A program made the position numbers and the translations under genes. From Thermodesulfobacteriota bacterium (GTDB lineage Bacteria; Thermosulfidibacterota; Thermosulfidibacteria; Thermosulfidibacterales; B14-G1), in assembly GCA_024274915.1 (NCBI GenBank), contig JAJSAC010000023.1, positions 1 through 40,389 on the forward strand: a DNA stretch of 40,389 bases, read 5' to 3'. The notes below the pieces were generated by a model. That model searched no databases and had not been told where the DNA came from. It was given only the letters and a program-made list of their open reading frames with translations. Below, one piece after another: positions 6,114 through 38,505 of the stretch (within the stretch, counting starts at the first letter, position 1; every line of letters begins with the position of its first letter).

Positions 6114-6131
6114 ATTGCTAAAGGGATTGGA

Positions 6132-6860
6132 ATGAGTCTTCAAGCGGTGATCCTGGCGGCAGGGCAGGGGAGGCGTCTATTGCCCCTCACTCTGGAGATA
6201 CCCAAGGCACTGCTCCCTCTGAATGGGGCCACAGGCCTCACTATCCTTGAGCACCAGGTGGAACTCCTGGAGAGGGTAGGGGTGAAGGAGGTCTTGGTGG
6301 TGGTGGGCCATGGCAAGGACAGGATAGAAGCCCTTCTGGGAGGGCGGGTTTCTTACGTCGTGAACGAGGACTACCAGAACACTAACTCCATCTACTCTTT
6401 CTATCTCACTTTAGAGCGTCTGGGAGAAGAGGTACTTGTCATTAACGGCGATGTCCTCTTCCCAGAGGAGGTGGTGGAAAGGCTTCTGGCCTCGGAGTAC
6501 TCTGGAGTCCTCTCTATAGACACGGGGGCCCGTCTGGATGAAGAGACCATGAAAGTGGCCTTGGAAGGACCAAGGGTGGTGGACATTAGGAAAGACTTAC
6601 CTCCCGAAAGAGCCCATGGTGAAAATCTGGGAGTAGTCCTTTTTAAGGGAAGAGCTCTTGCCGTTCTCAAGAAGGTGGTCAAGGATATGGTGGACAAGGG
6701 TGAGGTGAACCGCTGGATTCCCGCCGCCTTCCGGGAAATGCTCTTCTTTCATCCCATTTATGCCGTGGACGTGAAAGGACTTCCCTGGATCGAGGTAGAT
6801 TTCCCCCAGGACCTGGAGCGAGCCCAGAAAGAGGTGTATCCCAGGATAGGAGAAAAATGA
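6132..6860 (+). CDS. LicC-like nucleotidyltransferase (CDP- or NDP-donor synthesis)
   Basis: A 242-residue nucleotidyltransferase. It has the N-terminal signature LAAGQGRRLLPLT (about 8-20), PKALLPL near 24, NTNSIYS near 83, which is typical of the LicC/inositol-phosphate cytidylyltransferase branch rather than glucose-1-phosphate thymidylyltransferases, and the metal-binding NGDV near 105. EVDFPQD near the C-terminus supplies the second acidic metal ligand. It lacks the extra C-terminal helices of RmlA or GlmU. It lies 18 bp after the CDP-glycerol-type transferase and overlaps the next glycosyltransferase as ATGA. I infer that it activates a phosphorylated polyol, choline-like or sugar group with CTP for its neighbour. 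The substrate is not determinable from sequence. Confidence 0.8.
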   Translation: MSLQAVILAAGQGRRLLPLTLEIPKALLPLNGATGLTILEHQVELLERVGVKEVLVVVGHGKDRIEALLGGRVSYVVNEDYQNTNSIYSFYLTLERLGEEVLVINGDVLFPEEVVERLLASEYSGVLSIDTGARLDEETMKVALEGPRVVDIRKDLPPERAHGENLGVVLFKGRALAVLKKVVKDMVDKGEVNRWIPAAFREMLFFHPIYAVDVKGLPWIEVDFPQDLERAQKEVYPRIGEK

Positions 6861-11492: not shown

Positions 11493-12328
11493 GAGAGTTC
11501 TCCCTTCTCCAATAGCTTCATCAACTCTTCCCTGATCCATTCCACGTGTCTTCTCCTGATGTACTCCCCCAAGTAAAAGAGCTTGAGCTTCTCTTCCAAG
11601 GACTCATCTCTAAGCCCTTTTGTGTACTCGTCGAAAATCCTCCTGGTTCCCCATTGTCTCCTCTCCCACACGTCCAATCTGACCAGATCTTTAACGTAGG
11701 AACCGAAACCGCTTCTCACTAGGTCCACCAATAGGACTCCATCCCCCAGCACTATGTTATTTCCGTGAAGGTCCCCGTGGGTCATTTGGAAGCTTTTCTC
11801 CTCACTGTCCAGCTTGTCCACCAGTTTCTTCACCCATTTCGACCCTACCAGTTTTTCCCTGATCTGGACGTCTAGCTGGGAGACCTGCCGCATTTTTCTA
11901 TAATAATGCCTGTAGAACCCATCTTTTTTCATTTTCCTGATTGGGATCCCCCATCTCTCCCCCTCGACGGAGTGGAGGCGTTTTACGGCCCTCACCACCT
12001 CCTTTACCGTAGCTGGATCAAGTTCCTTTTTGGAAAGGGGCTCTCCCACTACGAAGTCCTCGAAAATCAAAAAGAGGTTCTTTTCGTATAGGGCTTGGGG
12101 AGGGAAAGCCATAGCGGGAACATGAATCCCCTTGGAGTTTAAGAACTCACTGGCCCATATATAGCGCCTCCACTTGCCCTCGCTCCCCACTGCCTTCACT
12201 ACCATTGAGGGGACGCCTCTCCTTGCGAGGACGAAGGCTCTTCCGTGCTTGCCAATCGGTGTTACCTTCAGTCCCCCACCGCCAAATCGCTCTCTAATGT
12301 ACTCCAAAAGGAGTGGGTTTCCTTCCAC
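11489..12328 (-). CDS. WaaP/APH-like sugar or lipopolysaccharide kinase
   Basis: A 279-residue protein kinase-like fold. VVKAV near residue 43 gives the ATP-binding lysine (K45), IFEDFVVGEPL near 88 is the hinge, HGDLHGNN at 184-191 is the catalytic loop with D186 and N190/N191, and the metal-binding aspartate D202 lies in LVDLV (in place of DFG or DFE). This fits the lipopolysaccharide-kinase/aminoglycoside-phosphotransferase clan; in this cluster a role phosphorylating a core sugar is more likely than drug resistance. The start is GTG at 12328 after GGAG. It is first in a two-gene minus-strand unit with the GT4 gene at 10377. The precise acceptor is unknown. Confidence 0.78.
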   Translation of the reverse strand: MEGNPLLLEYIRERFGGGGLKVTPIGKHGRAFVLARRGVPSMVVKAVGSEGKWRRYIWASEFLNSKGIHVPAMAFPPQALYEKNLFLIFEDFVVGEPLSKKELDPATVKEVVRAVKRLHSVEGERWGIPIRKMKKDGFYRHYYRKMRQVSQLDVQIREKLVGSKWVKKLVDKLDSEEKSFQMTHGDLHGNNIVLGDGVLLVDLVRSGFGSYVKDLVRLDVWERRQWGTRRIFDEYTKGLRDESLEEKLKLFYLGEYIRRRHVEWIREELMKLLEKGELS

Positions 12329-12369
12329 TGGCCTTGCTCCTGATCTACGTATTAATGCTTGTTTACGGC

Positions 12370-12407
12370 ATTATAAGATGATATTGTGCCCACCCTGGAA
12401 CCGTCAA
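12370..12407 (-). promoter_or_regulatory. Candidate promoter for the kinase/GT4 pair (weak)
   Basis: A perfect TATAAT on the minus strand (12370-12375) lies about 42 bp before the GTG start of the kinase gene. A TTGACG lies at 12402-12407, but the 26-bp spacing is too long, so only the -10 is convincing. The gap 12329-12455 between the divergent genes must hold promoters for both strands. Confidence 0.3.
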
Positions 12408-12455
12408 GCGCACCCTGTTCCTTCATGGGGCCGTTTTCAGCGTTGGGAGGAAGAG

Positions 12456-13658
12456 ATGGGCTGGGAGGAAACCCGTTGGAGGGAAGGATTTTACGAGATC
12501 AGCTGGTGGACCTTTCTGCTGGTGGTTTTTATTATACCTCTTCCTTTACCCTCCTGGGTCAACAGCCTTTTGCTGGTCTGGTTGTCCCTTTACCTTCTAG
12601 TGAGAATGGCCTTCAAAGAGTTCAAATTAGATCGTGGAATTATAGCTCTCTTGGCCTTTCTTGCAATAGTCCTCGTCTCATGCCTCTTCTCCATAAACCT
12701 AAACAAAAGTATGACCTACTTCCGTAAGGATATGGTCCTAGTGGCTATTCTATACTTGTCGGCTTCCCAGATGGTCACCACCAGAAAGAGGCTCATCCAG
12801 CTCTCCCTGGTACTCCTTTTATCTTTTATGGTGGCAGTGGTTCTCAGCTTCGGTCACTACGGAAAGAGGCACGCCCTTTACGGCATCTTTGGCCATCATA
12901 CCAGGTACGGGAAGTTTTTAGACTTGGTGATACCCCTCTCCATCTCTCTGGTGGTAGGGGGGGTAACCATGATTCGTATTTTGGCTCTAGTCCTTCTTTT
13001 CCTGGCAGGTTACTCCCTGATTCTCACCTTGAGCAGGGGGGCTTGGGTAGGCTCCTTCACGGGCGTTCTGGGCGTGATCGTAAGACTCAGGAAGGTCTTG
13101 ATGACTGTCACGATCCTGGCCGCCGTCTTTCTGACGGCTATTATAATTCTCCCCCGCAAGGGCGAGATCTACAGGAGGTTCATGAGCCTTGTTCACCTGG
13201 AAGAGTCGGCTAAAAAGGAGAGGTCTTTGACCCATCGCAGGGACTTTTACAAGACGGCCATGGTTTTAATCAAGGAAAGACCATTCGTGGGTTGGGGATA
13301 CGGACGGAAGACCCCCAGAGTTATCCTGAAACGCATGGGTGAGGAGTGGTTTGCCTCCAGGGGACTCAGGCCCTTCAAAAGCCATGCCCACAACACCTAT
13401 CTGGAGGTGACCTTGGAGACAGGGTTGTTGGGACTTTTGACTTTCTTGACCCTTTTGGGGGTCTGCCTCCTTAATTATTTAAAGGTGAAACCTGGGGACG
13501 GGGAGGTCTTTTTCACCAAGACGGGAGCATTTTTCTCCATTCTTGCCCTCATGGTTCACGGCCTTGTTACCAACTTTTTCCAGCAGCCCTTTATCTTTCT
13601 CCTTTTCCTATACATAGCTCTCGTCAATGCCGAGGTGAAACCCGGCGCCGAACCATGA
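12456..13658 (+). CDS. O-antigen ligase/polymerase family protein (Wzy_C)
   Basis: About 400 residues with roughly ten hydrophobic helices. The diagnostic periplasmic-loop segments are LSRGAWVG, the FVGWGYGR region and HAHNTYLEVTLETGLLG near residue 310, the Wzy_C/WaaL signature. Such proteins move undecaprenyl-linked glycan onto a lipid A core or polymerise repeat units in the inner membrane. I chose ATG at 12456 because GGGAGGAAG stands just upstream; a longer in-frame reading back to 12174 would overlap the divergent kinase gene and has no membrane character. The next gene starts inside its stop (ATGA). Ligase and polymerase cannot be told apart from sequence alone. Confidence 0.85.
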   Translation: MGWEETRWREGFYEISWWTFLLVVFIIPLPLPSWVNSLLLVWLSLYLLVRMAFKEFKLDRGIIALLAFLAIVLVSCLFSINLNKSMTYFRKDMVLVAILYLSASQMVTTRKRLIQLSLVLLLSFMVAVVLSFGHYGKRHALYGIFGHHTRYGKFLDLVIPLSISLVVGGVTMIRILALVLLFLAGYSLILTLSRGAWVGSFTGVLGVIVRLRKVLMTVTILAAVFLTAIIILPRKGEIYRRFMSLVHLEESAKKERSLTHRRDFYKTAMVLIKERPFVGWGYGRKTPRVILKRMGEEWFASRGLRPFKSHAHNTYLEVTLETGLLGLLTFLTLLGVCLLNYLKVKPGDGEVFFTKTGAFFSILALMVHGLVTNFFQQPFIFLLFLYIALVNAEVKPGAEP

Positions 13659-26979: not shown

Positions 26980-28179
26980 ATGGGCAAGGTGAAGAGGGGA
27001 ATGATAAAGGTTTTTATTTTCCTTCTAGGAGTCTTCCTCTTCTCCTTTCCTTTTACCTCCTCCCACGGGGAGGAGGTGTATAAAATAGGAGCAATCTTTG
27101 CCGTTACGGGTCCCGCGGCCTGGCTGGGGGATCCCGAGAAAAAGGCCATAGAGCTCATGGTAGAGAGGCTAAATAAACAGGGAGGAATTCAAGAGAAGAA
27201 GATCAAAGTGGTCATTTATGACACCCAGGGAGATCCTCAGATAGCTGTTTTGAAGGCCCGGGAGTTGGTGACGAAGAACCATGTGATGGCTATACTGGGC
27301 CCTAGCCGGACCCCCACTTCTGCAGCGGTCATGAAGGCCCTCCAGTTGGACAAGGAGAAAAATCGCTTTCGTATACCCATGGTGAGCTGCGCGGCGGGCA
27401 GAATCCTCACCCAACCTGTAAAGCCCTGGGTCTTCACCACCCCCCAAACCAATGCCCTGGCGGCTGGGAAGGTCTTGGAGTATCTATCGTCCAAGGGTAT
27501 CAAAAGGGTGGCTGTAGTCTATGTATCCAACGAATTCGGCGAAGACGGATATAGCAACCTTAAGGGACTGGCTCCCCAATATGGAATTAAGATAGTGGGG
27601 GTAGAGACCTACGGGGGCAAGGACAGAGACATGACGGCCCAGCTCACCAAGCTGGCGGCTAAAAAGCCCAAGGCCATCATCAACTGGAGCGTGGGACCCA
27701 CTTCAGTGATAGTGACCAAGAACTTCAAGCAACTGGGACTGGACAGGAAGGGCATACTGTTGGTGATGAACCATGGCCAAGGTAACTTGAAGTACGTAGA
27801 GCTTTGTGGTGATGCAGCAGAAGGGGTGGTGCTACCATCCGGCAAAATACTGGTGGCCCGAGACCTTTCCAATACTGACCCCCAAAAGCAGGTACTCATG
27901 AAGTTCAAAGAGATGTACGAGAATGCTTATCACGAGTCTGTATCCCACTTCGCCGGTCACGCTTATGACGCCCTTATGTTGGTGGCGACAGCTATAGAGA
28001 AGGGGAAAGTGAGACCTGGGAACGGAGTGGCCCTGAGGAAGGCCCTGGAGACCAAAGTCTCTGGCTTCGTGGGAATAGACGGTGTCTTCCGGTACAGCCC
28101 TCGGGACCACAACGGTCTCTCCATAGGGGATTTAGTCATGCTCAAAGTGGAAAAAGGACGATTTATTTTGGCCCGGTAG
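26980..28179 (+). CDS. Branched-chain amino acid-type ABC transporter substrate-binding protein (copy 1)
   Basis: A 399-residue periplasmic binding protein of the Leu/Ile/Val type 1 fold. It has a hydrophobic signal sequence (residues about 10-28), mature start near EEVYKIGAIF, ligand-site motifs VTGPAAWLGD, DTQGDPQIAVLKARELV, GPSRTPTSAA, GGKDRDMTAQL and FAGHAYDALMLV. The ligand is not evident; GPSRTPTS is close to binding proteins for amino acids, amides or aromatic acids. It starts after GGAGGGTGG. The second copy follows immediately, and the DNA shares a near-identical 142-bp block. It is likely expressed from the promoter at 26920-26949. Confidence 0.9.
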   Translation: MGKVKRGMIKVFIFLLGVFLFSFPFTSSHGEEVYKIGAIFAVTGPAAWLGDPEKKAIELMVERLNKQGGIQEKKIKVVIYDTQGDPQIAVLKARELVTKNHVMAILGPSRTPTSAAVMKALQLDKEKNRFRIPMVSCAAGRILTQPVKPWVFTTPQTNALAAGKVLEYLSSKGIKRVAVVYVSNEFGEDGYSNLKGLAPQYGIKIVGVETYGGKDRDMTAQLTKLAAKKPKAIINWSVGPTSVIVTKNFKQLGLDRKGILLVMNHGQGNLKYVELCGDAAEGVVLPSGKILVARDLSNTDPQKQVLMKFKEMYENAYHESVSHFAGHAYDALMLVATAIEKGKVRPGNGVALRKALETKVSGFVGIDGVFRYSPRDHNGLSIGDLVMLKVEKGRFILAR

Positions 28180-28248
28180 GGCCCCATCTGGTCTTTTCCC
28201 AGAGCAAGTCTAAAAAATTTAAGACATTAACCATTAAAGGAGGGAAAA

Positions 28249-29433
28249 ATGAAAAAGATAACTGTAGCCTTGTTGGCCCTGATAGTGGGGCTAGTCTGGA
28301 GCACCACCAGGTTAGATGCTGGTGAAGCAGTGTACAAGATAGGGGCCATCTTTGCTGTCACGGGTCCTGCTGCTTGGTTGGGAGACCCCGAGAAGAAGGC
28401 AGCGGAGCTTCTGGAGAAAAAAATAAACGAAAAGGGCGGTGTCAACGGTATGAAGGTAGAAGTGATCGTCATGGACACTCAGGGCGATCCCCAGACAGCC
28501 GTCCTCAAGGCTCGGGAACTGGTAACCAAGAGGGGTGTTATGGCTCTGGTGGGTCCTAGCCGGACTCCTACCTCGGCGGCCATCATGAAAGCCCTGCAGC
28601 TGGACAAGAAAAAGCCCCGCTTCAAGGTACCCATGGTGAGCTGTGCGGCGGGCAGGATTCTCACTAAGCCAGTAAAACCCTGGGTGTTTACTACTCCCCA
28701 GACCAATGCCCTTGCCGCTGAGAGGATTGTGAAATACCTCTCGGACAAAGGCATAAAGAGGGTGGGAATAGTTTATGTATCCAACGGTTTTGGTGAGGAT
28801 GGCTACGAGAACCTCAAAGTGCTAGCTGCCAAGTACGGAGTGGAGATAGTGGGAGCCGAGACCTACGGGGGCAAGGACAGAGACATGACGGCCCAGCTCA
28901 CCAAGCTGGCGGCTAAAAAACCCAAGGCCATCATCAACTGGAGTGTAGGGCCCACTTCAGTGATAGTGACCAAGAACTTCAAGCAACTGGGACTGGACAA
29001 GAAGGATATATTGCTGGTGATGACCCATGGCCAGGGCAATATAAAGTACGTTGAGCTTTGCGGAGATGCTGCTGAGGGAGTTATTCTTCCTGCCGGCAAG
29101 ATTCTGGTAGCCCAGGAACTTCCGGACACCGATCCCCAGAAGCAGGTACTCATGAAGTTCAAAGAGATGTACGAGAAGAGATATAAAGAGCCGGTGTCTA
29201 CCTTCGCTGGCCATGCGTACGATGCCCTCATGCTGGTGGTGGAAGCCCTTGAGAAAGGCAAAGTTAAGCCCGGCGATGGCGCAGCCCTAAGGGAAGCACT
29301 GGAGAGCAGAACAGCCGCCTTTGTGGGTATTGATGGGATTTTCCACTATAACCCCAAGGACCACAATGGCCTCTCGGTGGAAGATCTAGTGATGCTTAAG
29401 ATTGAGAAGGGAACCTTCCGGTTGACCAAATAA
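28249..29433 (+). CDS. Branched-chain amino acid-type ABC transporter substrate-binding protein (copy 2)
   Basis: A 394-residue paralogue of the previous protein, visibly more than two-thirds identical along the whole mature chain. The signal peptide is different (KKITVALLALIVGLVW), while the ligand-site motifs VTGPAAWLGD, GPSRTPTSAA, WVFTTPQTNALAA, GGKDRDMTAQL and FAGHAYDALMLV are unchanged. It has its own ribosome binding site GGAGGG before ATG at 28249, 69 bp after the first copy. Two binding proteins can share one permease, giving broader ligand range. The sequence blocks that are identical to copy 1 suggest recent conversion. Confidence 0.9.
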   Translation: MKKITVALLALIVGLVWSTTRLDAGEAVYKIGAIFAVTGPAAWLGDPEKKAAELLEKKINEKGGVNGMKVEVIVMDTQGDPQTAVLKARELVTKRGVMALVGPSRTPTSAAIMKALQLDKKKPRFKVPMVSCAAGRILTKPVKPWVFTTPQTNALAAERIVKYLSDKGIKRVGIVYVSNGFGEDGYENLKVLAAKYGVEIVGAETYGGKDRDMTAQLTKLAAKKPKAIINWSVGPTSVIVTKNFKQLGLDKKDILLVMTHGQGNIKYVELCGDAAEGVILPAGKILVAQELPDTDPQKQVLMKFKEMYEKRYKEPVSTFAGHAYDALMLVVEALEKGKVKPGDGAALREALESRTAAFVGIDGIFHYNPKDHNGLSVEDLVMLKIEKGTFRLTK

Positions 29434-29451
29434 TCACCTTTTGGCTAGTTA

Positions 29452-29480
29452 GGGGGCGCGGGGGACACCCGGCCCCCTTT
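29452..29480 (+). terminator. Intercistronic hairpin between binding protein and permease genes
   Basis: A GC-rich stem of GGGGGCGCGGG with CCCGGCCCCC (29452-29477) is followed by only three T. This is weak as a terminator, but at this position a structure can lower permease expression relative to the binding protein, as in other ABC operons. The role is inferred. Confidence 0.5.
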
Positions 29481-29491
29481 CCTAATGGTAG

Positions 29492-30379
29492 ATGGAGGTG
29501 AAGTTGGCCCAGCTGGTTCAGTACATCTTCGCCGGTCTAACCATGGGGGTGATCTATGCCCTCACCGGAGTTGGATTCAACCTTATCTACAATGCCACAG
29601 GGGTTATTAACTTCGCCCAAGGGGAATTTGTCATGTTGGGCGCCATGTTCCTTTACACCTTCCAGGAAGTTCTCCACTGGCCTCCTTTTATCTCCTTACC
29701 CCTGGTTTTCCTCATGGGGGGATTGGTAGGGGTGGTCTTTGAGTATGGAGTGGTGAAGCCCCTCATACGCCTGGGAGTCATAACTGTCATCATTGGCACC
29801 ATTGGAGCCTCGGTGGTCCTGAAAGGCGGGGCCATGTTGGTCTGGGGTAAGAATGCCTTGGCAGTGGAACCCCTCATTTCCGAGAAACCCGTGGCTTTCC
29901 TGGGGGCCTCCCTAAATACCCAAGTGCTAGTGGTTCTGATGGTGACGGCCATTGCCGTGGCCATATTCTGGTATTTCTTTGGTTTCACCATCTTGGGCAA
30001 GGCCATTCAGGCCTGTTCTGTAAATCCCCTGGCAGCCCGCTTGGCAGGTGTGCCAGTAGAAAGGATGATCACCCTCTCCTTCTGTTTCAGCGGCGCCTTG
30101 TCAGCCCTGGCGGGAGGGCTTATCGCCCCCATCACCCTGGCCGAGTATGACATGGGCACCATGTTGGCCTTGAAAGGCTTCTGCGCCGCCATCATAGGGG
30201 GGCTAGGCAACAACCCTGGTGCCATGGTAGGAGGTCTCCTCCTGGGAGTGATGGAAGGCCTCAGTGCCGGGTACCTCTCTTCGGGATACAAAGACGCCCT
30301 GGCTTTCCTGGTTCTTATCCTAGTCCTCTTTTGGCGTCCTGAAGGCCTCATCACCCGGGGGAAGGGAGAGCGGGTTTGA
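29492..30379 (+). CDS. livH: Branched-chain amino acid-type ABC transporter permease (LivH)
   Basis: A 295-residue inner-membrane permease with about eight helices. NLIYNATGVINFAQGEF near 30-47 is the LivH signature and GGLGNNPGAMVGGLLLGV near 233 is the conserved cytoplasmic coupling region. The ATG at 29492 has no ribosome binding site. A TTG at 29504 would follow GGAGG by 5 bp and give a start MAQLVQYIFAGL that fits the family better; both are possible. The stop overlaps livM as TTGA. It pairs with the livM product to form the channel. Confidence 0.92.
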   Translation: MEVKLAQLVQYIFAGLTMGVIYALTGVGFNLIYNATGVINFAQGEFVMLGAMFLYTFQEVLHWPPFISLPLVFLMGGLVGVVFEYGVVKPLIRLGVITVIIGTIGASVVLKGGAMLVWGKNALAVEPLISEKPVAFLGASLNTQVLVVLMVTAIAVAIFWYFFGFTILGKAIQACSVNPLAARLAGVPVERMITLSFCFSGALSALAGGLIAPITLAEYDMGTMLALKGFCAAIIGGLGNNPGAMVGGLLLGVMEGLSAGYLSSGYKDALAFLVLILVLFWRPEGLITRGKGERV

Positions 30380-31317
30380 AAAAGGACTATCTCCTCTTGC
30401 TAGTGGTAGCCCTGGCGGCCTTCGCCTTGCCTATGATCCTCCCAGGAGATTACTACGTGGAAGTCTTCCTTTTCATGGGCATAAATATCTTGGTAGCCTT
30501 GGGCCTGTCCCTCCTCATGGGCTATGCTGGCCAGATATCTCTAGGCCACGCGGGATTCTATGGAATGGGAGCATACATCTCAGGGGCCCTTTCAGCCCAT
30601 CTAGGATGGCCAGTACCTCTGGCTGCCTTAATGGCCCTAGTAGCCACTGCCCTGGTAGCGGGTCTGATAGGTTGGCCCACTCTACGCCTAAAAGGTCACT
30701 ACCTGGCCATGGCCACTTTGGGTCTAGGAATCATCCTCTACATTCTTTTTGTCCAACTCAGAAGCATTACGGGTGGGGCCTCTGGCCTAGCAGGAATCCA
30801 ACCTGTTCATATAGGTGGTTTTTACCTGGACACCCCCCGCCGTTACTGTTACTTGGTGTGGGCCCTGGTGATTCTATCTTTTCTCTTCTCTATAAATCTG
30901 GTGAGATCTAGGACCGGCCTGGCTTTGAGGGCTTTGCACTATAGCGAAGTAGCCGCCTCAACCCTTGGGATAGACGTGGCAAAATACAAACTCCAGGTCT
31001 TTGTCTTCTCCTGCGTTCTTGCAGCTCTGGGGGGCATCCTCTATGCTCATTACATCACATTCATCAGTCCCGAGACCTTTGGCTTCATGTACTCCATAAA
31101 ACTGGTGGTTATGATAGTTCTAGGGGGTATGTATTCCCTCTGGGGTGCCCTTTTAGGAGGGGCCTTCCTCTCCCTTTTGCCGGAGTTTCTCCATCGCCTG
31201 GAAGACTTTGAGGTGATGGTTAATGGGCTCATCCTCCTCATGATCCTCATTTTTCTCCCGGGAGGCTTGGTGGGGCTCCTCCAGAAGATAGGAGAAAAGA
31301 TCCGTGGTCATTCTTGA
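30376..31317 (+). CDS. livM: Branched-chain amino acid-type ABC transporter permease (LivM)
   Basis: A 313-residue permease with about nine helices. LLMGYAGQISLGHAGFYGMGAY near 46-67 is the LivM signature, and LVVMIVLGGMYSLWGALLGG near 238 is the coupling region. The start is TTG at 30376, which overlaps the livH stop as TTGA and follows GGGAG. The end overlaps livG by 14 bp. Residues 10-30 are the first helix, not a signal peptide. It is part of the same transport complex; no special features. Confidence 0.92.
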   Translation: MKKDYLLLLVVALAAFALPMILPGDYYVEVFLFMGINILVALGLSLLMGYAGQISLGHAGFYGMGAYISGALSAHLGWPVPLAALMALVATALVAGLIGWPTLRLKGHYLAMATLGLGIILYILFVQLRSITGGASGLAGIQPVHIGGFYLDTPRRYCYLVWALVILSFLFSINLVRSRTGLALRALHYSEVAASTLGIDVAKYKLQVFVFSCVLAALGGILYAHYITFISPETFGFMYSIKLVVMIVLGGMYSLWGALLGGAFLSLLPEFLHRLEDFEVMVNGLILLMILIFLPGGLVGLLQKIGEKIRGHS

Positions 31318-32074
31318 TGCCAGAAATGTGAAGAGGTCCTTCGGTGGGGTTAAGGCCCTGAAAGGAGTGGACGTCACTGTTCAGGAGGGGACCATCACGG
31401 CTCTCATCGGGCCCAACGGTTCTGGCAAGACCACCCTATTCAATATCCTCTCTGGGATTCTCCCTATGGAGGAAGGTGAAATCATATTCATGAACCAAGA
31501 TATCGGAAAGTGGCCAGCCCACAAAAGGGCGCTCCTTGGTATGGCCAGGACCTTTCAGAACCTCCAGATCTTTCAAGAAATGTCAGTACTAGAGAACGTG
31601 ATGATAGGAGGATTCCGTCATACATCCTCAGGCTTCATGGCGGGGGGGTTATCCCTACCCAAGGTGAGGGGGGAGATGAAGGCTTTAGAGGGGAAGGCAA
31701 TAGAGCTCTTGGGGGAGCTGGGCCTCACCTCCTACGCCCATGTTCAGGCAGGAGAACTGCCCTTTGGGCTACAGCGAAAGGTAGAAATAGCTAGAGCCTT
31801 GGCTCTGGAACCCAAGCTTCTCCTCCTGGACGAACCGGCCGCTGGACTTACCACCAAGGAGACCTCGGACCTGGCCCGTTTTATCCACGGCCTGAAGGAG
31901 AGGGGTATCACCGTTTTCCTGGTGGAACACGACATGGACCTGGTCATGGGGATATCTGAGTGGATCATAGTACTCAACTTTGGCCAGAAAATTTACGAAG
32001 GGACGCCATTGGCAGTGAAGAGGGAAAGAACAGTGATCAAGGCCTATTTGGGAGAGAGGCGTGCTAAAGGCTAG
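31304..32074 (+). CDS. livG: Branched-chain amino acid-type ABC transporter ATP-binding protein (LivG)
   Basis: A 256-residue ABC ATPase. Walker A is GPNGSGKT at 36-43, the Q-loop lies in ARTFQNLQIFQ near 82, the signature reads LPFGLQRKVEIARAL near 154, Walker B is LLLLDEPAAGL near 172, and the H-switch is LVEHDMDLVMG. The signature begins LPFG instead of LSGG, which is usual for LivG proteins. The GTG at 31304 follows GGAG. It overlaps livF by 14 bp. It energises transport with LivF at the inner face of the membrane. Confidence 0.94.
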   Translation: MVILDARNVKRSFGGVKALKGVDVTVQEGTITALIGPNGSGKTTLFNILSGILPMEEGEIIFMNQDIGKWPAHKRALLGMARTFQNLQIFQEMSVLENVMIGGFRHTSSGFMAGGLSLPKVRGEMKALEGKAIELLGELGLTSYAHVQAGELPFGLQRKVEIARALALEPKLLLLDEPAAGLTTKETSDLARFIHGLKERGITVFLVEHDMDLVMGISEWIIVLNFGQKIYEGTPLAVKRERTVIKAYLGERRAKG

Positions 32075-32789
32075 GAGACTCAAGGTCTTTTACGGTCGGA
32101 TCCAGGCGGTGAAGGGGGTCAGCTTCCATATCCACAAAGGAGAGACAGTGGCTTTCATTGGCCCCAATGGTGCAGGGAAGAGCTCCGTTCTCATGGCCCT
32201 CTCCGGGGTGGTCAGGAAAGAAGGAGAGGTTATCTTGGAAGGTAGAGACATCTCCCAGCTTTCCCCTTACGCTTTGGCAAAAGAGGGGATCATCCAAGTT
32301 CCAGAAGGGCGCCAGGTCTTCTCCAGTTTAACTGTGGAAGAGAACCTCCTCTTGGGAGGATTCCCCAAAAGAAAGGACAAAAAGTGGATGAAAGAAACCA
32401 AAGAGTGGGTTTATCACCTCTTTCCCCTCCTGGCTGAGAGACGGAGACAACTTGCCGGATCCCTCTCCGGTGGCGAACAACAGATGTTAGCCCTGGGCCG
32501 GGCCCTCATGGGTGATCCCCGCATCCTTCTTTTGGACGAGCCAAGCTTGGGTCTGGCCCCTGTGATTGTTGAGGATATATACAGAACCTTGAGAGAACTT
32601 AGGAAGGAGAGGTCCATGTCCATAATATTGGTGGAACAGAACGCACCCCTGGCTCTAGAGTTCGCCCACAGGGCTTACGTTATGGAGTCAGGGGCCATCG
32701 TCCTCTCGGGAGAGACGGAGATGCTCATTTCGGACGACACGGTGCTGGACGTCTACTTGGGAAGGGCCCGGGAAGACTTCTTTGACTAG
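32061..32789 (+). CDS. livF: Branched-chain amino acid-type ABC transporter ATP-binding protein (LivF)
   Basis: A 242-residue ABC ATPase. Walker A is GPNGAGKS at 34-41, the Q-loop is in EGIIQVPEGRQVFSSLTVEENL near 74, the signature LSGGEQQMLALGRAL near 136, Walker B LLLDEPSLGL near 158 and the switch histidine is replaced by the LivF-type LVEQNAPLALE. The start is GTG at 32061 in a 14-bp overlap with livG, with GGGAGAGAGG upstream. It forms the ATPase heterodimer with LivG. PaaK follows after 9 bp, so all of these genes are one transcription unit. Confidence 0.94.
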   Translation: MLKARRLKVFYGRIQAVKGVSFHIHKGETVAFIGPNGAGKSSVLMALSGVVRKEGEVILEGRDISQLSPYALAKEGIIQVPEGRQVFSSLTVEENLLLGGFPKRKDKKWMKETKEWVYHLFPLLAERRRQLAGSLSGGEQQMLALGRALMGDPRILLLDEPSLGLAPVIVEDIYRTLRELRKERSMSIILVEQNAPLALEFAHRAYVMESGAIVLSGETEMLISDDTVLDVYLGRAREDFFD

Positions 32790-32798
32790 GGGGGAAGA

Positions 32799-34088
32799 AT
32801 GAAGTGGATGTGGAATCCCAAGTACGAGGCCATGGATAGGGAAGAGCTAGAACAGATCCAGCTGGAGCGTCTCCAGGCTACCCTTCACCACGCTTATAGG
32901 CACGTGCCCTTTTACAGGGAGCTCTTTGACAGGGCAGGATTGGGACCTGGCGACATCCTCAGTCTCCAGGACCTGCGAGAGGTGCCCTTCACCACCAAAG
33001 AAGACCTTCTCCAGGGCTTTCCCTATGCTTTCTTTGCCGTTCCTCTCACTAATGTGGCCAGGATACATACCAGCAGTGGCACCACCGGCAAACCCATTGT
33101 GGTAGGATACACCAAGAGGGACCTCCAATACTGGGCCCACCTCAATGCCCGTATTCTCTTGGCAGGGGGACTGGGAGAGAGAGACGTGGTCCAGATCTCC
33201 TTCAATTACGGGCTATTCACCGGAGGATTCGGTTTCCACGCAGGTGCTGAACTTTTGGGAGCCACCGTCATTCCCGCTTCTGCCATGAGCATAACTAGAC
33301 AAATAAACGTCATGATCAACTTCAAAGCCACAGCCCTAGTGAGCCTACCATCCCACGCCTTAAGAATAGGCCACCGACTTCAGGAGATGGGGATAGATCC
33401 CAGGAGTCTTTCCCTCAAAGTAGGCTTCTTTGGTGCCGAACCGTGGTCTGAAGCCACCCGCAGGCAGATAGAAGACCATCTTATGATAAAAGCCCTGGAC
33501 AACTATGGCCTGGCCGAAGTAGGGGGACCAGGGGTTTCCTACGAATGCGAATACCGCCAGGGTCTTCATGTCAGTGAAGACCACTTCTATCCGGAGGTTA
33601 TAGATCCCACTACAGGGGAGGTGCTAGGTCCGGGACAAGAGGGGGAACTGGTCCTCACGACCCTTGCCAAGGAGGCTTTTCCTGTTTTGCGTTTCCGCAC
33701 GGGAGACCTCACTTCCCTCAGCTATGAGCCCTGCGAGTGCGGCAGGACCCTGGTGCGTATGTCCCGAGTAAAGGGTAGGGTGGACGATATGATCATCGTG
33801 CGGGGAATAAATCTCTTTCCCAGCCAGGTGGAGGATATCCTCCTCTCCTTCCAGGTAGGGCCCAATTACCTGATAAGACTCTACAGAGAGGAAGGGTTGG
33901 ATCAAGCGGAGGTTCAGGTAGAAAGTGTCCTTACAGGTGCTAAGGAGAGGAAAGCCTTGACCAAAAGGATAGAGCGGGATTTAGCGGAAAAGTTGGGTTT
34001 GGAAATAAGGGTGGTTTTGATGGATCCTGGTGGCATAAAGGCATCCAGCGGCAAACAACAGGTGGTAATGGATGAAAGGGAGATATGA
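32799..34088 (+). CDS. paaK: Phenylacetate-CoA ligase family protein
   Basis: A 429-residue AMP-forming acyl-CoA ligase, EC 6.2.1.30 type, which activates phenylacetate or a related aryl acid to its CoA thioester. TSSGTTGKP at 91-99 is the phosphate-binding loop, NYGLAEVGGPG near 236 contacts AMP, FRTGDLT near 300 and VKGRVDDMIIVRGINLFP near 326 are the hinge and C-terminal signatures, and the C-terminal lysine is in SSGKQQ. The length is standard. It follows GGGGGGAAG. Its place directly after livF suggests that the transported ligand or its oxidation product is the acid activated here. Indole-acetate-like or other aryl acids cannot be excluded. Confidence 0.9.
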   Translation: MKWMWNPKYEAMDREELEQIQLERLQATLHHAYRHVPFYRELFDRAGLGPGDILSLQDLREVPFTTKEDLLQGFPYAFFAVPLTNVARIHTSSGTTGKPIVVGYTKRDLQYWAHLNARILLAGGLGERDVVQISFNYGLFTGGFGFHAGAELLGATVIPASAMSITRQINVMINFKATALVSLPSHALRIGHRLQEMGIDPRSLSLKVGFFGAEPWSEATRRQIEDHLMIKALDNYGLAEVGGPGVSYECEYRQGLHVSEDHFYPEVIDPTTGEVLGPGQEGELVLTTLAKEAFPVLRFRTGDLTSLSYEPCECGRTLVRMSRVKGRVDDMIIVRGINLFPSQVEDILLSFQVGPNYLIRLYREEGLDQAEVQVESVLTGAKERKALTKRIERDLAEKLGLEIRVVLMDPGGIKASSGKQQVVMDEREI

Positions 34089-34183
34089 TTGCTAGATCCT
34101 TGCCCGGCCCGAGCACCCTTGCAAATATAACAATGGACCTGGATTAAGTGGTGGTTTTACTTCTTGCTATGAGTTGGAGAAGC
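34089..34183. other. Gap between the liv/PaaK operon and the AT-rich island
   Basis: No gene or clear terminator is visible. The base composition becomes AT-richer towards the island. The two flanking genes converge here, so only 3' ends meet. Confidence 0.4.
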
Positions 34184-35629
34184 CTAGCCTTCCACCATAT
34201 AAAAGGGAAGGGGAATGCCCAAGTACGAGAGAATCATCGGTGTTAGCTCCCCAATACTTAAGTCATCCTTACCTTTTATATGCATGGACAAAGCCATTTC
34301 CTTGTTAAATATGACTATCCCCTCCATTTCATGCCTTCCTATAGCCCCTTTCCTGAACGAAGGTGTGTAAAAGAGGGCTTCTCTAGCCATACTAGAGTTA
34401 AAAGAATACCCATTTTCTGGTTCAATAATGGCGTCCGGCAAAGATCTCTCGAAAGAATAAGAACCATCTGTATAATTTCCAGTCATTATCAGACGATTCA
34501 CTACCCTGTTTCCTGTCTCTGGATCCTTGACCTCAAGCACCTTTTCTGACAGCTCATCCAGAATGGTTTTTATTTCTCCTTTGTCCTTGGAATTAACAAA
34601 TAAACAAGCATATAAACTTCCGTATGGTACAAAAGCCTTTGTCAAATTCCAATCCAAATAGTGATCAAAGTCCAATCTCTTTCTTATCTTTTCTCTCTTC
34701 CTTACTGGAATCACTTTTCTTGCTATATTGTATTTATCTAATTTGCGAACAAGCTGTTCTGCTCTTCTCAACGTTGATGTTCTGAGTTTTAAAAAACCTT
34801 CTTCCAAAAGCCATCTATTTATATTGAAAACTTTTTGTAACGGTCCGAATCCGTGATCTGACATAATAATAACAGCAGCTTCTCCCGCCTGGTTAATTAT
34901 TTGGTTTATGTTCTCGTCTATTGATTTATAAAACTCAATGCACATTTCAAACATCTCAAAGTTAAAGTTTTCTCCTTCTGGATCAATGAAAGGCCAGGCG
35001 GCATGCTGAAGAGAGTCTGAAGACTGATTATGAATCATGAGCAAGTTCCAGCTTGTTTTGTTCATTAACCAAAGAGCTACTTTAGTTCTTAATTCTTCAG
35101 CTTCTATTAACTTTCCAACGAATTTTTTAAACCCTTTGAGCCTCAATACATCATGACTAACAAATATAGTGTATTCTCCAAACTCACCCAGTATCTCTTC
35201 TTTAAGATCGATAGGATAAGTGAAGGTACTTTCTGTACTTGGCGTAAGAATGCCACTGATCATGTATCCGTTTATCTCTTTTGGAGGATAGGTGACTGGA
35301 ACATTTATGGATATTACTTTCATACCTGCTCTACTAACCAACTGCCATAGTGTAGGATACCCTACGTTGGAAGCGTTTATCAAACCACAGGTCTTTTTAG
35401 ATCTATCGAAACTGAGAAAATCCATAATGCCGTGCTTTAGTGGACTGACTCCAGTTTGGAAGGTCGTCCATGCCGGGGCTGTGACTGGAGGTAAAGTTGA
35501 ATAGAGTATTCCCGAGTCTCCCTCGTCAACCAATTGGGACAATGTGGGAAGCAGGCCCATTTTCATAAGGGGCCTGAGGATTTTCCAGGTGCCCCCATCT
35601 ATTCCGAATATCAATACTTTTTTACCCAT
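34184..35629 (-). CDS. Alkaline phosphatase superfamily (phosphodiesterase-like) hydrolase
   Basis: A 481-residue protein with the alkaline phosphatase/nucleotide pyrophosphatase fold. GIDGGTW at 9-15 supplies the first metal aspartate (D11), APAWTTFQTG at 51-60 the threonine nucleophile (T55 or T56), NQSSDSLQHAAW near 205-220 an aspartate/histidine pair, and MSDHGFGP near 260 the final aspartate/histidine pair. All metal ligands are kept. There is no signal peptide, so it acts in the cytoplasm. Such proteins hydrolyse phosphate or sulfate esters or diesters; relatives occur in polysaccharide clusters and defence loci (PglZ has the same fold). It is AT-richer than the genes to the left. It lies 16 bp after the PP-loop gene in the same unit. 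Confidence 0.8.
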   Translation of the reverse strand: MGKKVLIFGIDGGTWKILRPLMKMGLLPTLSQLVDEGDSGILYSTLPPVTAPAWTTFQTGVSPLKHGIMDFLSFDRSKKTCGLINASNVGYPTLWQLVSRAGMKVISINVPVTYPPKEINGYMISGILTPSTESTFTYPIDLKEEILGEFGEYTIFVSHDVLRLKGFKKFVGKLIEAEELRTKVALWLMNKTSWNLLMIHNQSSDSLQHAAWPFIDPEGENFNFEMFEMCIEFYKSIDENINQIINQAGEAAVIIMSDHGFGPLQKVFNINRWLLEEGFLKLRTSTLRRAEQLVRKLDKYNIARKVIPVRKREKIRKRLDFDHYLDWNLTKAFVPYGSLYACLFVNSKDKGEIKTILDELSEKVLEVKDPETGNRVVNRLIMTGNYTDGSYSFERSLPDAIIEPENGYSFNSSMAREALFYTPSFRKGAIGRHEMEGIVIFNKEMALSMHIKGKDDLSIGELTPMILSYLGIPLPFYMVEG

Positions 35630-35645
35630 TAAGCTTTTCCAGACG

Positions 35646-36209
35646 TTAAATGTATCCTAACGATTTCAGTCTGTTCAATACTTCTTCATCGTTGTTAGAG
35701 CTTTTTTTATCCTCAAAATTGAATATACTAGTGTAACCTAGATCATATATTTTACAATATGGGAGTTCTTTGCCTTCAATGTATCGCCACAGTTCAGGTT
35801 CTGGAATATCCAATAATGGCGATATAATAGTAATATCCTTGTACTTTCTTTTAGTTTCTTTACATTTTATTGTCGTAATTAAAGTGTCATAACGGCTTTT
35901 TTTCATGTAGGGAATAACCACTTCATCTATGCACTTTAGTAGAAATTTGCCGCTATCTAATCCTTCGCATGAAAGCTCACATTTTATATTTTGAATCTCA
36001 AGATAGGACTTATCTTTAATGAAACTCATGTAGTCATAGACTTCCTTGTGAAAATACTTTGTTTCTAATAAGAGAATTACAGGCTGTCTCCTTTCTAATA
36101 AGTCCAATAAAAAAGTGCTTTCCATATCTCCCAGGAACAGGAGACACATTTTACTTTCTGTAGTACTATTTCCCAATATCTTCATTACAAATTCCACCAG
36201 TCGGTCCAA
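35646..36209 (-). CDS. Degenerate PAPS-reductase-like (PP-loop) protein
   Basis: A 187-residue protein. The C-terminal part reads ISPLLDIPEPELWRYIEGK and LPYCKIYDLGYTSI, which matches the end of the PAPS reductase/ATP-pyrophosphatase family. The N-terminal FLGDMESTFLLDLLERR occupies the place of the PP-loop SGGKDS, with the GG and K lost, and LLLETKYFHKEVYDY replaces the usual DTGxxFPET. No terminal cysteine motif is present. I infer a divergent, perhaps catalytically inactive relative of DndC/SspD or CysH. The TTG at 36209 follows GGGGGTGAG; ATG at 36185 is an alternative. The promoter at 36265-36293 serves it and the next gene. Confidence 0.6.
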   Translation of the reverse strand: MDRLVEFVMKILGNSTTESKMCLLFLGDMESTFLLDLLERRQPVILLLETKYFHKEVYDYMSFIKDKSYLEIQNIKCELSCEGLDSGKFLLKCIDEVVIPYMKKSRYDTLITTIKCKETKRKYKDITIISPLLDIPEPELWRYIEGKELPYCKIYDLGYTSIFNFEDKKSSNNDEEVLNRLKSLGYI

Positions 36210-36239
36210 ATCTCACCCCCAAAACCTCTTTTTATAAAT

Positions 36240-36260
36240 TTGTCCTTTACTACTGGACAA
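36240..36260. promoter_or_regulatory. Inverted-repeat operator candidate
   Basis: TTGTCC (36240-36245) and GGACAA (36255-36260) are exact inverted arms 9 bp apart. The site lies just downstream of the minus-strand -10 (36265-36270), across the expected transcription start of the PP-loop gene, the place where a repressor would block. Confidence 0.4.
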
Positions 36261-36264
36261 GACT

Positions 36265-36293
36265 TTTATAAAATTATTTTCCATCCAGTTCAA
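36265..36293 (-). promoter_or_regulatory. Promoter of the PP-loop/phosphodiesterase unit
   Basis: On the minus strand TTGAAC (36288-36293) and TATAAA (36265-36270) are exactly 17 bp apart. The start would fall near 36258, about 50 bp before the TTG start. A second weaker match, TTGTCC-18-TATAAA, lies nearer the gene. Confidence 0.6.
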
Positions 36294-36309
36294 GGGGTTT
36301 CGTACAATA

Positions 36310-36337
36310 TTGACTTGGTTTATATGTTGTGTATATT
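36310..36337 (+). promoter_or_regulatory. Promoter of the nucleotidyltransferase/methylase unit
   Basis: TTGACT (36310-36315) and TATATT (36332-36337) are 16 bp apart; each matches five of six consensus bases. Transcription would begin near 36344, about 40 bp before the gene. Confidence 0.6.
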
Positions 36338-36382
36338 AATTGATAAATTTACTGAAGAGCTTATCTGAGAGAGTGATGTTCA

Positions 36383-37480
36383 GTGATGGTCAAAAACAAT
36401 CATGAAATAGACTTGATAAAAACCCTTTCTTTCTTCCCAGAAAACGCCCCAACTTCTCTAAGATATAGGGCCATGGAAGATCTCTCTATAATATCTAAAG
36501 TTGCACTAAAGGTATGGCCAAGATCAACAGGAGCCATTTATGGTAGTCTGTCTTTTGGCGAAGGAAAATGGAAAGAGTACAATGATAAGGCAATAATGAC
36601 TAGCGACTATGATGTATATATTATTATAAACAACCTATTTGATTATATTAAAGCTTTAAAACACAAAAACGATTTCAAGAGATTTATAAATATTAGGATA
36701 TCCCTCCCATTAAGCGTCACTTTTATATGGCAGCCTTTGGTTAATCTCAGGCTAGTATCTGTACAAGCTAGGGTCATTTGGGGAGATCTTGCCTTGGAAA
36801 AAGCATTTGAGCAAACACCACCTCCACCCACCATAAACAATCTAAGAATAGGTTACTTGTTCTTGATTAGATCGCTAACTTCTGGATTAGAGAGAAGGGA
36901 TATGTTAGAGTCTGCTATAGTGAGAGCATTATGGTCATATTTACTATCAAGCAATGTGTCACGCAGGAACTGGCATAATATTTTTTCTCTAAAATACGAT
37001 TTAAACTATTTAAAGGAAGAGAAAGACTTAGACCCCCAGATTAAAAACACCATCGAGAGCGTTCTAAAAAAGAAATTAAGTGCCTCGGAATTGAACAAGT
37101 GCTACACAGATGACAAACTATTTGAAACAGCAAAATTCATCTTGCATAAATCATATAATAGAACAAAAGTGAAATTTAGATTAAAGGATTATATACACTA
37201 CATCTGTTACAAGTTAGATACCAAATCTTTAACGGAGATATGGACTAACTTCACTAAAGTAAGGCTAGAGATGTTTAGATCACTGGTAGACCTGATCGAT
37301 AGAGATTTTGATATAAAAGATCAAAGCAGATTTGATGATATCATGCTTAAAGCAGAAAGAATGCTGGGATACGAGAAAAGAAAAGACTTTAAGAACAAGA
37401 ACGAAAAGATAAATTATTGCTGTAACTTAATGATAAAGCTAGGTAATATCTATATTCATAAAACAAGGGCTTTTCCCTAA
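36383..37480 (+). CDS. Nucleotidyltransferase-like protein
   Basis: A 365-residue protein. The N-terminal part has the polymerase-beta nucleotidyltransferase signature: GS at 54-55 (AIYGSLSFGEGKW) and SDYDVYI with D75 and D77 for metal binding. The gap between GS and the aspartates is about 19 residues, longer than the usual 9-13, and I cannot see the third carboxylate. The rest is a basic, helical, unrecognised region (about 150-365) rich in lysine. It begins GTG-ATG; both are possible starts, ribosome binding is weak. It is one base upstream of the methylase, so the two are made together. Its target could be a nucleic acid, protein or small molecule; the function is unknown. Confidence 0.55.
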   Translation: MMVKNNHEIDLIKTLSFFPENAPTSLRYRAMEDLSIISKVALKVWPRSTGAIYGSLSFGEGKWKEYNDKAIMTSDYDVYIIINNLFDYIKALKHKNDFKRFINIRISLPLSVTFIWQPLVNLRLVSVQARVIWGDLALEKAFEQTPPPPTINNLRIGYLFLIRSLTSGLERRDMLESAIVRALWSYLLSSNVSRRNWHNIFSLKYDLNYLKEEKDLDPQIKNTIESVLKKKLSASELNKCYTDDKLFETAKFILHKSYNRTKVKFRLKDYIHYICYKLDTKSLTEIWTNFTKVRLEMFRSLVDLIDRDFDIKDQSRFDDIMLKAERMLGYEKRKDFKNKNEKINYCCNLMIKLGNIYIHKTRAFP

Positions 37481-37481
37481 G

Positions 37482-38378
37482 ATGAGCGATGTGATCATTT
37501 ACATAGGCGATTCTAGAAGCATGGATGCATTGGTTGACGAAAGTGTTGACCTCGTTGTATGTAGCCCACCCCTGTGGGACCACATAATTTACTCACACAA
37601 CAAAGGACAGATAGGTAATATTAGTGACTATAATGACTACCTAAAGGAACTGACATCAGTGTGGATAGAATGCTATAGAGTGCTGAAAGGCGGCAGATTT
37701 ATGACGATAGTGGCTCATGATTTTTACATTAGGGGAGAGACCGAACTAAAAGGCATTGTCCCTCTCCACATGGACATATTAAGAAGCTGTGTCGAAGCTG
37801 GGTTTAAGGCATACGACATTAAGGTTCTAAACATTTACCCCAAAACTTCCAGAGAGTTTTTGCCCAAAGATGAAAGACCCGACTCCAGGAGAGAAGACAT
37901 TGCTCCTCCAAGGTTGAGGTATCTTTTAGTCTTAAAAAAAGCTGGAAACATCACACCTGAAAAAATAAAAAGCAAGATTTTAAAAGAGTACTGGCAGCCA
38001 ATATGGGATCTATTTTCTGTACCAAAAATCCTTGGATCTAGCTTGATTTACAAGGGGCTTAAAAGAATTTATGATATTAAATTAGTTCAGAAGACTGTTA
38101 CGAGAGAGGCTGTAAAATGCACAAGGGAAAGGCTACTCAGAAAAAAATATGAGGAGTACCCTGCCATAGACTCTCTTAAAATATTTGAGAAAGCCATTAT
38201 AACATACACTGAAGAAGGAGAACTAGTGCTGGATCCTTTCATAGGCTCTGGAACAGCCGGTCTAGCTGCGCTGAGGCTGGGGAGAAAATGCATTGGTTAT
38301 GACATAAACAAAGCAGCTATAAACGTAATAAAAAACAGGCTTAAAGGAATGGATTTAAAGATTGTGGTAGGGGACTAA
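37482..38378 (+). CDS. Beta-class DNA methylase-like protein with altered SPPLW motif
   Basis: A 298-residue SAM-dependent methylase of the N4-cytosine/N6-adenine family. The order is motif IV near the N-terminus, CSPPLW at 27-32, and motif I at the C-terminus, DPFIGSGTAG at 251-260, then ALRLGRKCIGYDIN, so it is beta-class. The usual (S/D)PPY aromatic residue is leucine. The central part has FLPKDERPDSRREDIAPPRLRY, which carries the RRED-like family segment. No restriction gene is next to it. It follows the nucleotidyltransferase by one base and is in the same AT-rich island. A DNA target is most likely, but the leucine makes another substrate possible. Confidence 0.7.
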   Translation: MSDVIIYIGDSRSMDALVDESVDLVVCSPPLWDHIIYSHNKGQIGNISDYNDYLKELTSVWIECYRVLKGGRFMTIVAHDFYIRGETELKGIVPLHMDILRSCVEAGFKAYDIKVLNIYPKTSREFLPKDERPDSRREDIAPPRLRYLLVLKKAGNITPEKIKSKILKEYWQPIWDLFSVPKILGSSLIYKGLKRIYDIKLVQKTVTREAVKCTRERLLRKKYEEYPAIDSLKIFEKAIITYTEEGELVLDPFIGSGTAGLAALRLGRKCIGYDINKAAINVIKNRLKGMDLKIVVGD

Positions 38379-38505
38379 CAGGTAGGAACACTAAAAGACA
38401 TCGTTCTCAAAGCATTCCTTATTCCGCCCTCTTTACATGGACCCCACAGAACTCAGGCCTTATGGCGCGTTAGAGTCGAGCAAGACAGCCAGATTCTTAC
38501 GATTT
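38379..38505. other. Intergenic gap at the right edge of the island
   Basis: Only 127 bp between convergent genes. It holds no recognisable terminator or gene, and the composition changes back to the GC-richer state. The island edge is near here, without a direct repeat or tRNA that I can see. Confidence 0.35.

What the first reader, a model, noticed from the sequence alone, without database searches (positions are those of the whole stretch)
34184..38378. AT-rich four-gene island: phosphodiesterase + degenerate PP-loop protein, divergent from nucleotidyltransferase + altered DNA methylase
Seen: the base composition falls sharply from the neighbours, and two divergent pairs share one 173-bp control region with good promoters on both strands. 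Known: AP-superfamily hydrolases (PglZ in BREX), PAPS-reductase-like proteins (DndC, SspD) and DNA methylases each occur in DNA-modification or phage-defence loci. Inferred: these four together may form an undescribed nucleic-acid modification or defence module that arrived by transfer. No nuclease or ATPase is visible, so a sugar- or nucleotide-modification role stays possible.
Basis: partly seen in the sequence, partly recalled or inferred. Interest (0 to 1): 0.65.

Follow-up and report, generated by a model that had tools for sequence, protein, structure and literature searches.

The report
Foreign gene island with glycan links
Four AT-rich genes inserted into this bacterium look less like an anti-virus module than a stray piece of surface-sugar (probably sulfated-polysaccharide) machinery beside two genes with no proven connection to it, and one of the four carries a short tail shared with otherwise unrelated sulfate-activating and phosphoesterase enzymes.

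Summary
The island is real. Four intact ORFs (34184-38378) have 36.9% GC against 52% around them (z = -4.9). Three relatives in two genera lack it: there the flanking genes PaaK and DUF2284 are 6-53 bp apart; here 4.4 kb separate them. The defence/DNA-modification reading is not supported: PADLOC finds no BREX, Dnd or Ssp component apart from a trivial PglZ match. The phosphodiesterase is an NPP/phosphonoacetate-hydrolase-type alkaline-phosphatase (AP) superfamily enzyme with all its metal ligands; all six full-length relatives examined lie in polysaccharide loci. All four PP-loop family members found in 386 genomes adjoin or are fused to an AP-superfamily gene; in the same genus they sit beside CysD-CysN and glycosyltransferases. 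The window PP-loop has lost its catalytic lysine and C-terminal cysteines but keeps a C-terminal tail (RLKSLGYI). That tail recurs on AP-superfamily enzymes, CysC, AP-linked CysD, PP-loop and DUF2061-like proteins, and on 0 of 1114 other ORFs. The nucleotidyltransferase-like protein is very rare (one distant homologue, in a polysaccharide region). The methylase has SPPLW where homologues have SPPYW. Nothing ties the two pairs together beyond location. Best reading: a transferred, partly decayed glycan-sulfation fragment; mechanism unproven.

The parts
34089..38502 (.). Inserted segment between the PaaK stop codon and the conserved CTACCAT.. before DUF2284; right edge approximate
   Evidence: Absent in G001, G002, G004, where the flanks are 53, 6 and 43 bp apart; no terminal repeats or target duplication
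34184..35629 (-). AP-superfamily phosphodiesterase (481 aa); D11, T50, D205, H209, D258, H259, H433 present; lacks the LGY tail that five of six full-length relatives have
   Evidence: PF01663 E 2e-36; alignment; model pLDDT 83 matching phosphonoacetate hydrolase/ENPP
35646..36209 (-). Degenerate PP-loop (PAPS-reductase/CysD superfamily) protein, 187 aa
   Evidence: PF01507 E 5e-9; relatives at about 30% identity in G001/G002
36114..36137 (-). Altered PP-loop motif FLGDMEST (relative G002: FTGDKEST; CysD: SVGKDST)
   Evidence: Alignments
35649..35714 (-). C-terminal LGY tail (..DEEVLNRLKSLGYI)
   Evidence: Tail scan and tail profile match E 2.9e-7
36210..36382 (.). 173-bp divergent intergenic gap, 31% GC
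   Evidence: promoter-like sites not above shuffles
36383..37480 (+). Rare nucleotidyltransferase-like protein, 365 aa
   Evidence: One full-length homologue in 386 genomes; weak profile match to PF01909 sequences, p about 0.01
36542..36613 (+). GS(x18)SDYD nucleotidyltransferase-like motif
   Evidence: Alignment with the G049 homologue
37482..38378 (+). Beta-class DNA methyltransferase-like protein, 298 aa
   Evidence: PF01555 E 3e-27; closest solved structure 2zie
37563..37577 (+). Altered catalytic motif IV, SPPLW (closest homologues: SPPYW)

Best explanation
The island is a horizontally acquired AT-rich segment. Its left pair (phosphodiesterase + PP-loop protein) is an offshoot of machinery that many bacteria encode in polysaccharide loci and next to sulfate-activation genes (Sat/CysC or CysD/CysN). 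SHOWN: the insertion; the intact NPP-type metal site; the polysaccharide-locus context of the phosphodiesterase's full-length relatives; an AP-superfamily neighbour or fusion partner for every PP-loop relative found; loss of PP-loop catalytic residues; retention of the LGY tail. INFERRED: the phosphodiesterase hydrolyses or transfers a phospho- or sulfo-group on an activated nucleotide (APS/PAPS-like) or glycan precursor, and the PP-loop protein no longer does chemistry but docks through its tail to the shared partner of this enzyme set, as scaffold or regulator. The right pair (rare NTase-like protein + altered beta-class methyltransferase) came in the same segment, but no functional link to the left pair is shown. 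The NTase's only homologue lies in a polysaccharide region, so a sugar-nucleotide role is the better guess; the methyltransferase is probably an orphan with weakened or altered activity. Confidence is for the glycan/sulfation reading of the left pair; for the docking step alone about 0.3.
For: Insertion: empty sites in three relatives, GC z = -4.9. Phosphodiesterase: six invariant metal ligands plus T50, NPP/phosphonoacetate-hydrolase fold, six of six full-length relatives among glycosyltransferases, flippases or export genes. PP-loop: all four members in 386 genomes adjoin or are fused to an AP-superfamily domain; the same-genus locus reads PDE-CysD-CysN-sulfatase-PP-sulfatase-GT-Alg14-Alg13. 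Tail: 22/706 ORFs vs about 0.1 expected, 0/347 in control regions; by class AP 23/79, CysC 11/12, PP 3/3, other 0/1114. AP-CysC-AP-Sat order in unrelated genomes. NTase homologue in a G049 glycosyltransferase region.
Against: The island itself contains no glycosyltransferase or sulfate-activation gene. The phosphodiesterase lacks the LGY tail, and neither the NTase nor the methylase has it. The relatives' loci are only inferred to make sulfated glycans; no substrate is known. The PP-loop relatives are only about 30% identical. The methylase does not fit a glycan role.
Confidence: 0.5

Rival explanations
1. A new nucleic-acid modification or phage-defence module in which the phosphodiesterase works like PglZ, the PP-loop protein like DndC/BrxP/SspD, and the methylase and NTase modify nucleic acid.
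For: AP-superfamily + PAPS-reductase-like + methylase is the kind of mix seen in BREX/Dnd loci; type-4 BREX pairs PglZ with a PAPS reductase, BrxP (PMC12839542). Marginal PglZ match of the phosphodiesterase (E 0.0016). A type I restriction locus lies about 11 kb from the NTase homologue in G049.
Against: The PglZ match covers only the generic SDHG segment; no BrxP, DndC or SspD match for the window PP-loop; the closest folds are phosphonoacetate hydrolase and ENPPs. No ATPase, helicase, nuclease or cysteine desulfurase in the island. Neighbours of the relatives are polysaccharide or sulfate-activation genes. PP-loop and methylase active-site motifs are degraded.
Confidence: 0.12
2. Chance accretion of decaying foreign genes: two unrelated pairs share an insertion site and a low GC content, and the altered motifs reflect loss of function.
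For: The phosphodiesterase ends 50-90 aa short of most full-length relatives and without their tail; PP-loop lysine and cysteines lost; SPPYW became SPPLW. NTase relic elsewhere without the methylase. No genome seen has both pairs.
Against: All four frames are intact in AT-rich DNA; the phosphodiesterase keeps every metal ligand; the PP-loop keeps its tail intact; the divergent-pair layout and one-base NTase-methylase spacing look like expressed units.
Confidence: 0.3
3. Assembly or binning artefact: foreign DNA joined into the contig.
For: Sharp composition change; fragmented 77-contig assembly.
Against: Both flanks are syntenic with three relatives, so contaminant DNA would have to be joined twice at one intergenic point; a 78.5%-identical NTase remnant lies on another contig of the same genome.
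Confidence: 0.05

Closest known systems
Nucleotide pyrophosphatase/phosphodiesterase (NPP/ENPP) and phosphonoacetate hydrolase branch of the alkaline phosphatase superfamily (PF01663)
   Same: Fold and complete metal/nucleophile set
   Different: Only 12-15% identity to solved members; genomic context is polysaccharide/sulfation loci; substrate unknown; far below the PhnA cut-off (34 vs 408 bits)
CysD (sulfate adenylyltransferase subunit 2) / CysH (PAPS reductase)
   Same: PP-loop superfamily; C-terminus resembles that of AP-linked CysD (..KLRALGYM)
   Different: Catalytic Lys and C-terminal Cys lost; no CysH ECGLH ending; far shorter than CysD
Sulfate-activation loci with glycan genes (PDE-CysD-CysN-..-GT in the same genus; AP-CysC-AP-Sat elsewhere)
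   Same: AP-superfamily enzymes plus LGY-tailed proteins
   Different: The island has no glycosyltransferase and no sulfate-activation enzyme
BREX type 4 (PglZ + BrxP, PMC12839542)
   Same: An AP-superfamily protein with a PAPS-reductase-like protein
   Different: No BrxP/PglZ homology beyond superfamily level; no cysteine desulfurase, ATPase or other BREX gene
Beta-class N4-cytosine/N6-adenine DNA methyltransferases (e.g. Thermus 2zie)
   Same: Motif order (IV first, I last), DPFxGSGT, similar length
   Different: SPPLW instead of SPPYW; GSGTA instead of GSGTT

Membership tests
BREX (incl. type 4) | PglZ and, for type 4, BrxP | tested here: not met
   PglZ only E 0.0016 over 47 residues; no BrxP match for the window PP-loop; G001 relative only E 3e-4
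BREX (incl. type 4) | Accompanying BREX genes (ATPase, BrxL, cysteine desulfurase in type 4) | tested here: not met
   The inserted segment contains only the four genes
Dnd/Ssp phosphorothioation | DndC/SspD-type PP-loop protein with intact motif and cysteines | tested here: not met
   No DndC/SspD match; Lys and C-terminal Cys lost
PF01663 NPP-type phosphodiesterase | Two-metal ligand set and Thr/Ser nucleophile | tested here: met
   D11, D205, H209, D258, H259, H433 invariant and T50 present; NPP/PAH fold
Phosphonoacetate hydrolase (PhnA) | NCBIfam TIGR02335 curated cut-off | tested here: not met
   34 bits against a cut-off of 408
PAPS reductase CysH / ATP sulfurylase CysD | Intact SGGKDS-type PP-loop and C-terminal catalytic or structural motif | tested here: not met
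   FLGDMEST; no ECGLH; no GCEPC
LGY-tailed AP/sulfate-activation set (named here) | C-terminal L-x-x-[LM]-G-Y-h tail and AP-superfamily neighbour | tested here: met
   Window PP-loop: tail E 2.9e-7, neighbour PDE
LGY-tailed AP/sulfate-activation set (named here) | Sulfate-activation or glycosyltransferase genes in the same locus | tested here: not met
   Present in relatives, absent from the island
Beta-class DNA methyltransferase | Motif IV [DNS]PP[YFW] and motif I FxGxG | tested here: inconclusive
   Motif I present; motif IV is SPPL
Pol-beta-type nucleotidyltransferase | G[GS]..DxD motif in the NTase fold | tested here: inconclusive
   Motif present; profile match p about 0.01; no Pfam hit; structure model unusable
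DNA modification in the host | Modified bases in genomic DNA | not testable with these tools
   Needs single-molecule sequencing

The most novel reading that the evidence does not exclude
A short C-terminal 'LGY tail' marks the components of an undescribed sulfate-activation/AP-superfamily system: CysC, AP-linked CysD, DUF2061-like membrane proteins, PP-loop proteins and phosphodiesterases or sulfatases all dock through it to one partner. The AP-superfamily enzymes act as the missing sulfo- or phospho-transferases of glycan modification, and the window's PP-loop protein is a catalytically dead member kept for its tail.
Probability: 0.25. Interest if true: 0.78.

Novelty: new variant of a known kind. 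Interest (0 to 1): 0.45.

Why it matters
It turns a proposed defence island into a pointer to glycan chemistry. It also exposes a conserved gene set (AP enzyme-CysC-AP enzyme-Sat, and AP enzyme-CysD-CysN) whose members share a C-terminal tail across unrelated folds. I found no description of either in the open library searched (10 searches, mostly strict multi-term queries, so absence is weak evidence). If the tail is a docking signal, these bacteria may sulfate or phosphorylate surface glycans with AP-superfamily enzymes rather than classical sulfotransferases, which is directly testable.

Tried and rejected
(1) Wider search for the NTase: two genome-contig scans, a viral scan, plasmids and 386 genomes gave one full-length homologue plus a relic. 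(2) NTase structure model: pLDDT 47, matches meaningless. (3) Phage origin: no DNA similarity to phage records, methylase under 30% identical to phage methylases, no viral relatives of PP-loop or methylase found. (4) Transposon signature: no terminal repeats or target-site duplication. (5) Special promoter architecture: not above shuffles. (6) The LGY ending as merely the native CysD end: assimilatory CysD end LRKDGYM/LRREGYM, similar but without the Leu before Gly, and CysC, DUF2061-like and AP proteins cannot inherit it from CysD. (7) Literature searches for the AP-CysC-Sat set and for an LGY tail returned nothing relevant. (8) One Foldseek search of viral models was started and not collected, as the PDB result was enough.

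Full report
OBSERVATION. Pfam gives type I phosphodiesterase, PAPS-reductase-like PP-loop, no hit, and N6/N4 DNA methylase. GC is 0.369 over 34184-38378 against 0.522 +/- 0.031 in 135 other 4-kb windows from this genome. The 173-bp divergent gap is real, but promoter-like sites are no more frequent than in shuffled sequence.

INSERTION. The window is a whole contig (C14) of a 2.03-Mb, 77-contig assembly with few close relatives held. In two same-genus genomes (G001, G002) and one of another genus in the family (G004), PaaK and DUF2284, the genes flanking the island, are neighbours with gaps of 53, 6 and 43 bp. Alignment places the inserted DNA from just after the PaaK stop (34088) to about 38502. 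I found no terminal repeats or target duplication. With the low GC this argues for gain here rather than loss in the three others. A remnant of a second NTase copy (about 100 aa by protein, 149 bp at 78.5% DNA identity) lies between clpB and an hspR-like gene on contig C25; the similarity stops 3 bp past the NTase stop and no methylase follows. The NTase and the methylase are therefore separable.

PHOSPHODIESTERASE. In an 11-sequence alignment the six metal ligands D11, D205, H209, D258, H259 and H433 are invariant, and T50 sits at the nucleophile position, where all relatives have Thr or Ser. The model (pLDDT 83) matches phosphonoacetate hydrolase and ENPP structures. Full-length relatives (28-33% identity over the alignment) were examined in G034, G031 (two), G014, G049 and G009. 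Each lies among glycosyltransferases, Wzx-type flippases, chain-length or export genes (Pfam on selected neighbours). These relatives continue 50-90 aa further and five of the six end in an LGY tail; the window copy stops before it.

PP-LOOP PROTEIN. Among 386 genomes only four members of this subfamily scored clearly above ordinary CysH/CysD: the window, G001, G002 and a domain of a G167 protein. All four touch an AP-superfamily domain: window PDE-PP; G001/G002 sulfatase-PP-sulfatase; G167 a single sulfatase-PP-loop polypeptide. The G001 locus reads DUF2061-like, PDE, CysD, CysN, sulfatase, PP-loop, sulfatase, glycosyltransferase, Alg14, Alg13; G002 is similar. The window's own genome has that locus on C32 without the sulfatase/PP/sulfatase/GT stretch, and has separate CysH- and Sat-like genes on C23, which suggests the CysDN there serves something other than assimilation (inference). 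No sulfotransferase was recognised in these loci by eye or in the Pfam scan of ten of the genes; this was not tested genome-wide. The window PP-loop protein has FLGDMEST where G002 has FTGDKEST, and has lost the C-terminal GCEPC, so catalysis is unlikely (inference). It keeps the C-terminus EEVLNRLKSLGYI.

THE LGY TAIL. A scan of all ORFs then in hand found 22 of 706 ending in L-x-x-[LM]-G-Y-h-(0-4)-stop, against about 0.1 expected from the internal frequency of the same motif. Nineteen 20-kb regions chosen without regard to these genes gave 0 of 347. A 22-position tail profile over 386 genomes gave matches (E <= 0.1) in 133 genomes; the best 30 loci are largely CysC, AP-superfamily enzymes and CysD, with CysC usually flanked by AP enzymes. 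At E up to 0.1 some of the 133 will be chance. Over everything fetched: AP 23/79, CysC 11/12, CysD 5/9, PP 3/3, DUF2061-like 2/2, a small RHH-like protein 2/2, CysN 0/5, Sat 0/11, CysH 0/24, others 0/1114. Part of that tally is biased because some loci were fetched with the tail; searches are not. AP-CysC-AP-Sat order was seen in G049 and G009, and AP-CysC-AP or CysC-AP in about nine further genomes. Assimilatory CysD end LRKDGYM/LRREGYM, AP-linked CysD LRALGYM. The name DUF2061 for the small membrane protein is by eye.

NTASE AND METHYLASE. The NTase-like protein has one full-length homologue in 386 genomes, in a G049 region with glycosyltransferases, a DegT-type aminotransferase and, about 15 kb away, an LGY-tailed AP-superfamily membrane protein; a type I restriction locus lies about 11 kb on the other side. 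Its NTase assignment rests on the GS...SDxD motif and a weak profile match. The methylase is beta-class; its closest homologues have TSPPYW, it has CSPPLW, and GSGTA for GSGTT. In this enzyme class the aromatic residue at that place stacks on the flipped base (general knowledge), so normal activity is doubtful.

MECHANISM. Most likely, and only partly shown: the left pair acts on an activated sulfate or phosphate intermediate of surface-glycan synthesis, with the phosphodiesterase as catalyst and the PP-loop protein as a tail-docked non-catalytic partner. The right pair is a passenger or a separate function.

Noticed in passing
L159:11216-15735 (G049:C10), L170:8626-14080 (G009:C87), L201, L202, L209, L213, L214, L217: Conserved operon AP-superfamily enzyme - CysC - AP-superfamily enzyme - (where the locus extends that far) Sat, in genomes of many different families; the CysC copies end in the LGY tail.
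   Followed up: partly
C-termini in many loci; window 35649-35714: LGY tail shared by unrelated protein families (AP enzymes, CysC, AP-linked CysD, PP-loop, DUF2061-like, a small RHH-like protein), 0 of 1114 other ORFs.
   Followed up: partly
L102:6537-8837 (G167:C1): Natural fusion of a sulfatase-type AP-superfamily domain with a PAPS-reductase/CysD-type PP-loop domain in one 766-aa protein, ending in ..KLRQLGYF.
   Followed up: partly
L016:5450-5755 (G000:C25, between clpB and an hspR-like gene): AT-rich relic of a second NTase copy, 78.5% DNA identity over 149 bp, ending 3 bp past the NTase stop.
   Followed up: yes
L014 (G002:C66) 3960-13174 and G002:C66:36357-38150: In G002 the sulfation-type locus and the empty island site (DUF2284-PaaK) lie on one contig about 23 kb apart.
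   Followed up: no
window 26980-34088: By eye a branched-chain-amino-acid-type ABC transporter operon ending in a phenylacetate-CoA-ligase-like gene, of which the genome has about ten homologous matches.
   Followed up: no
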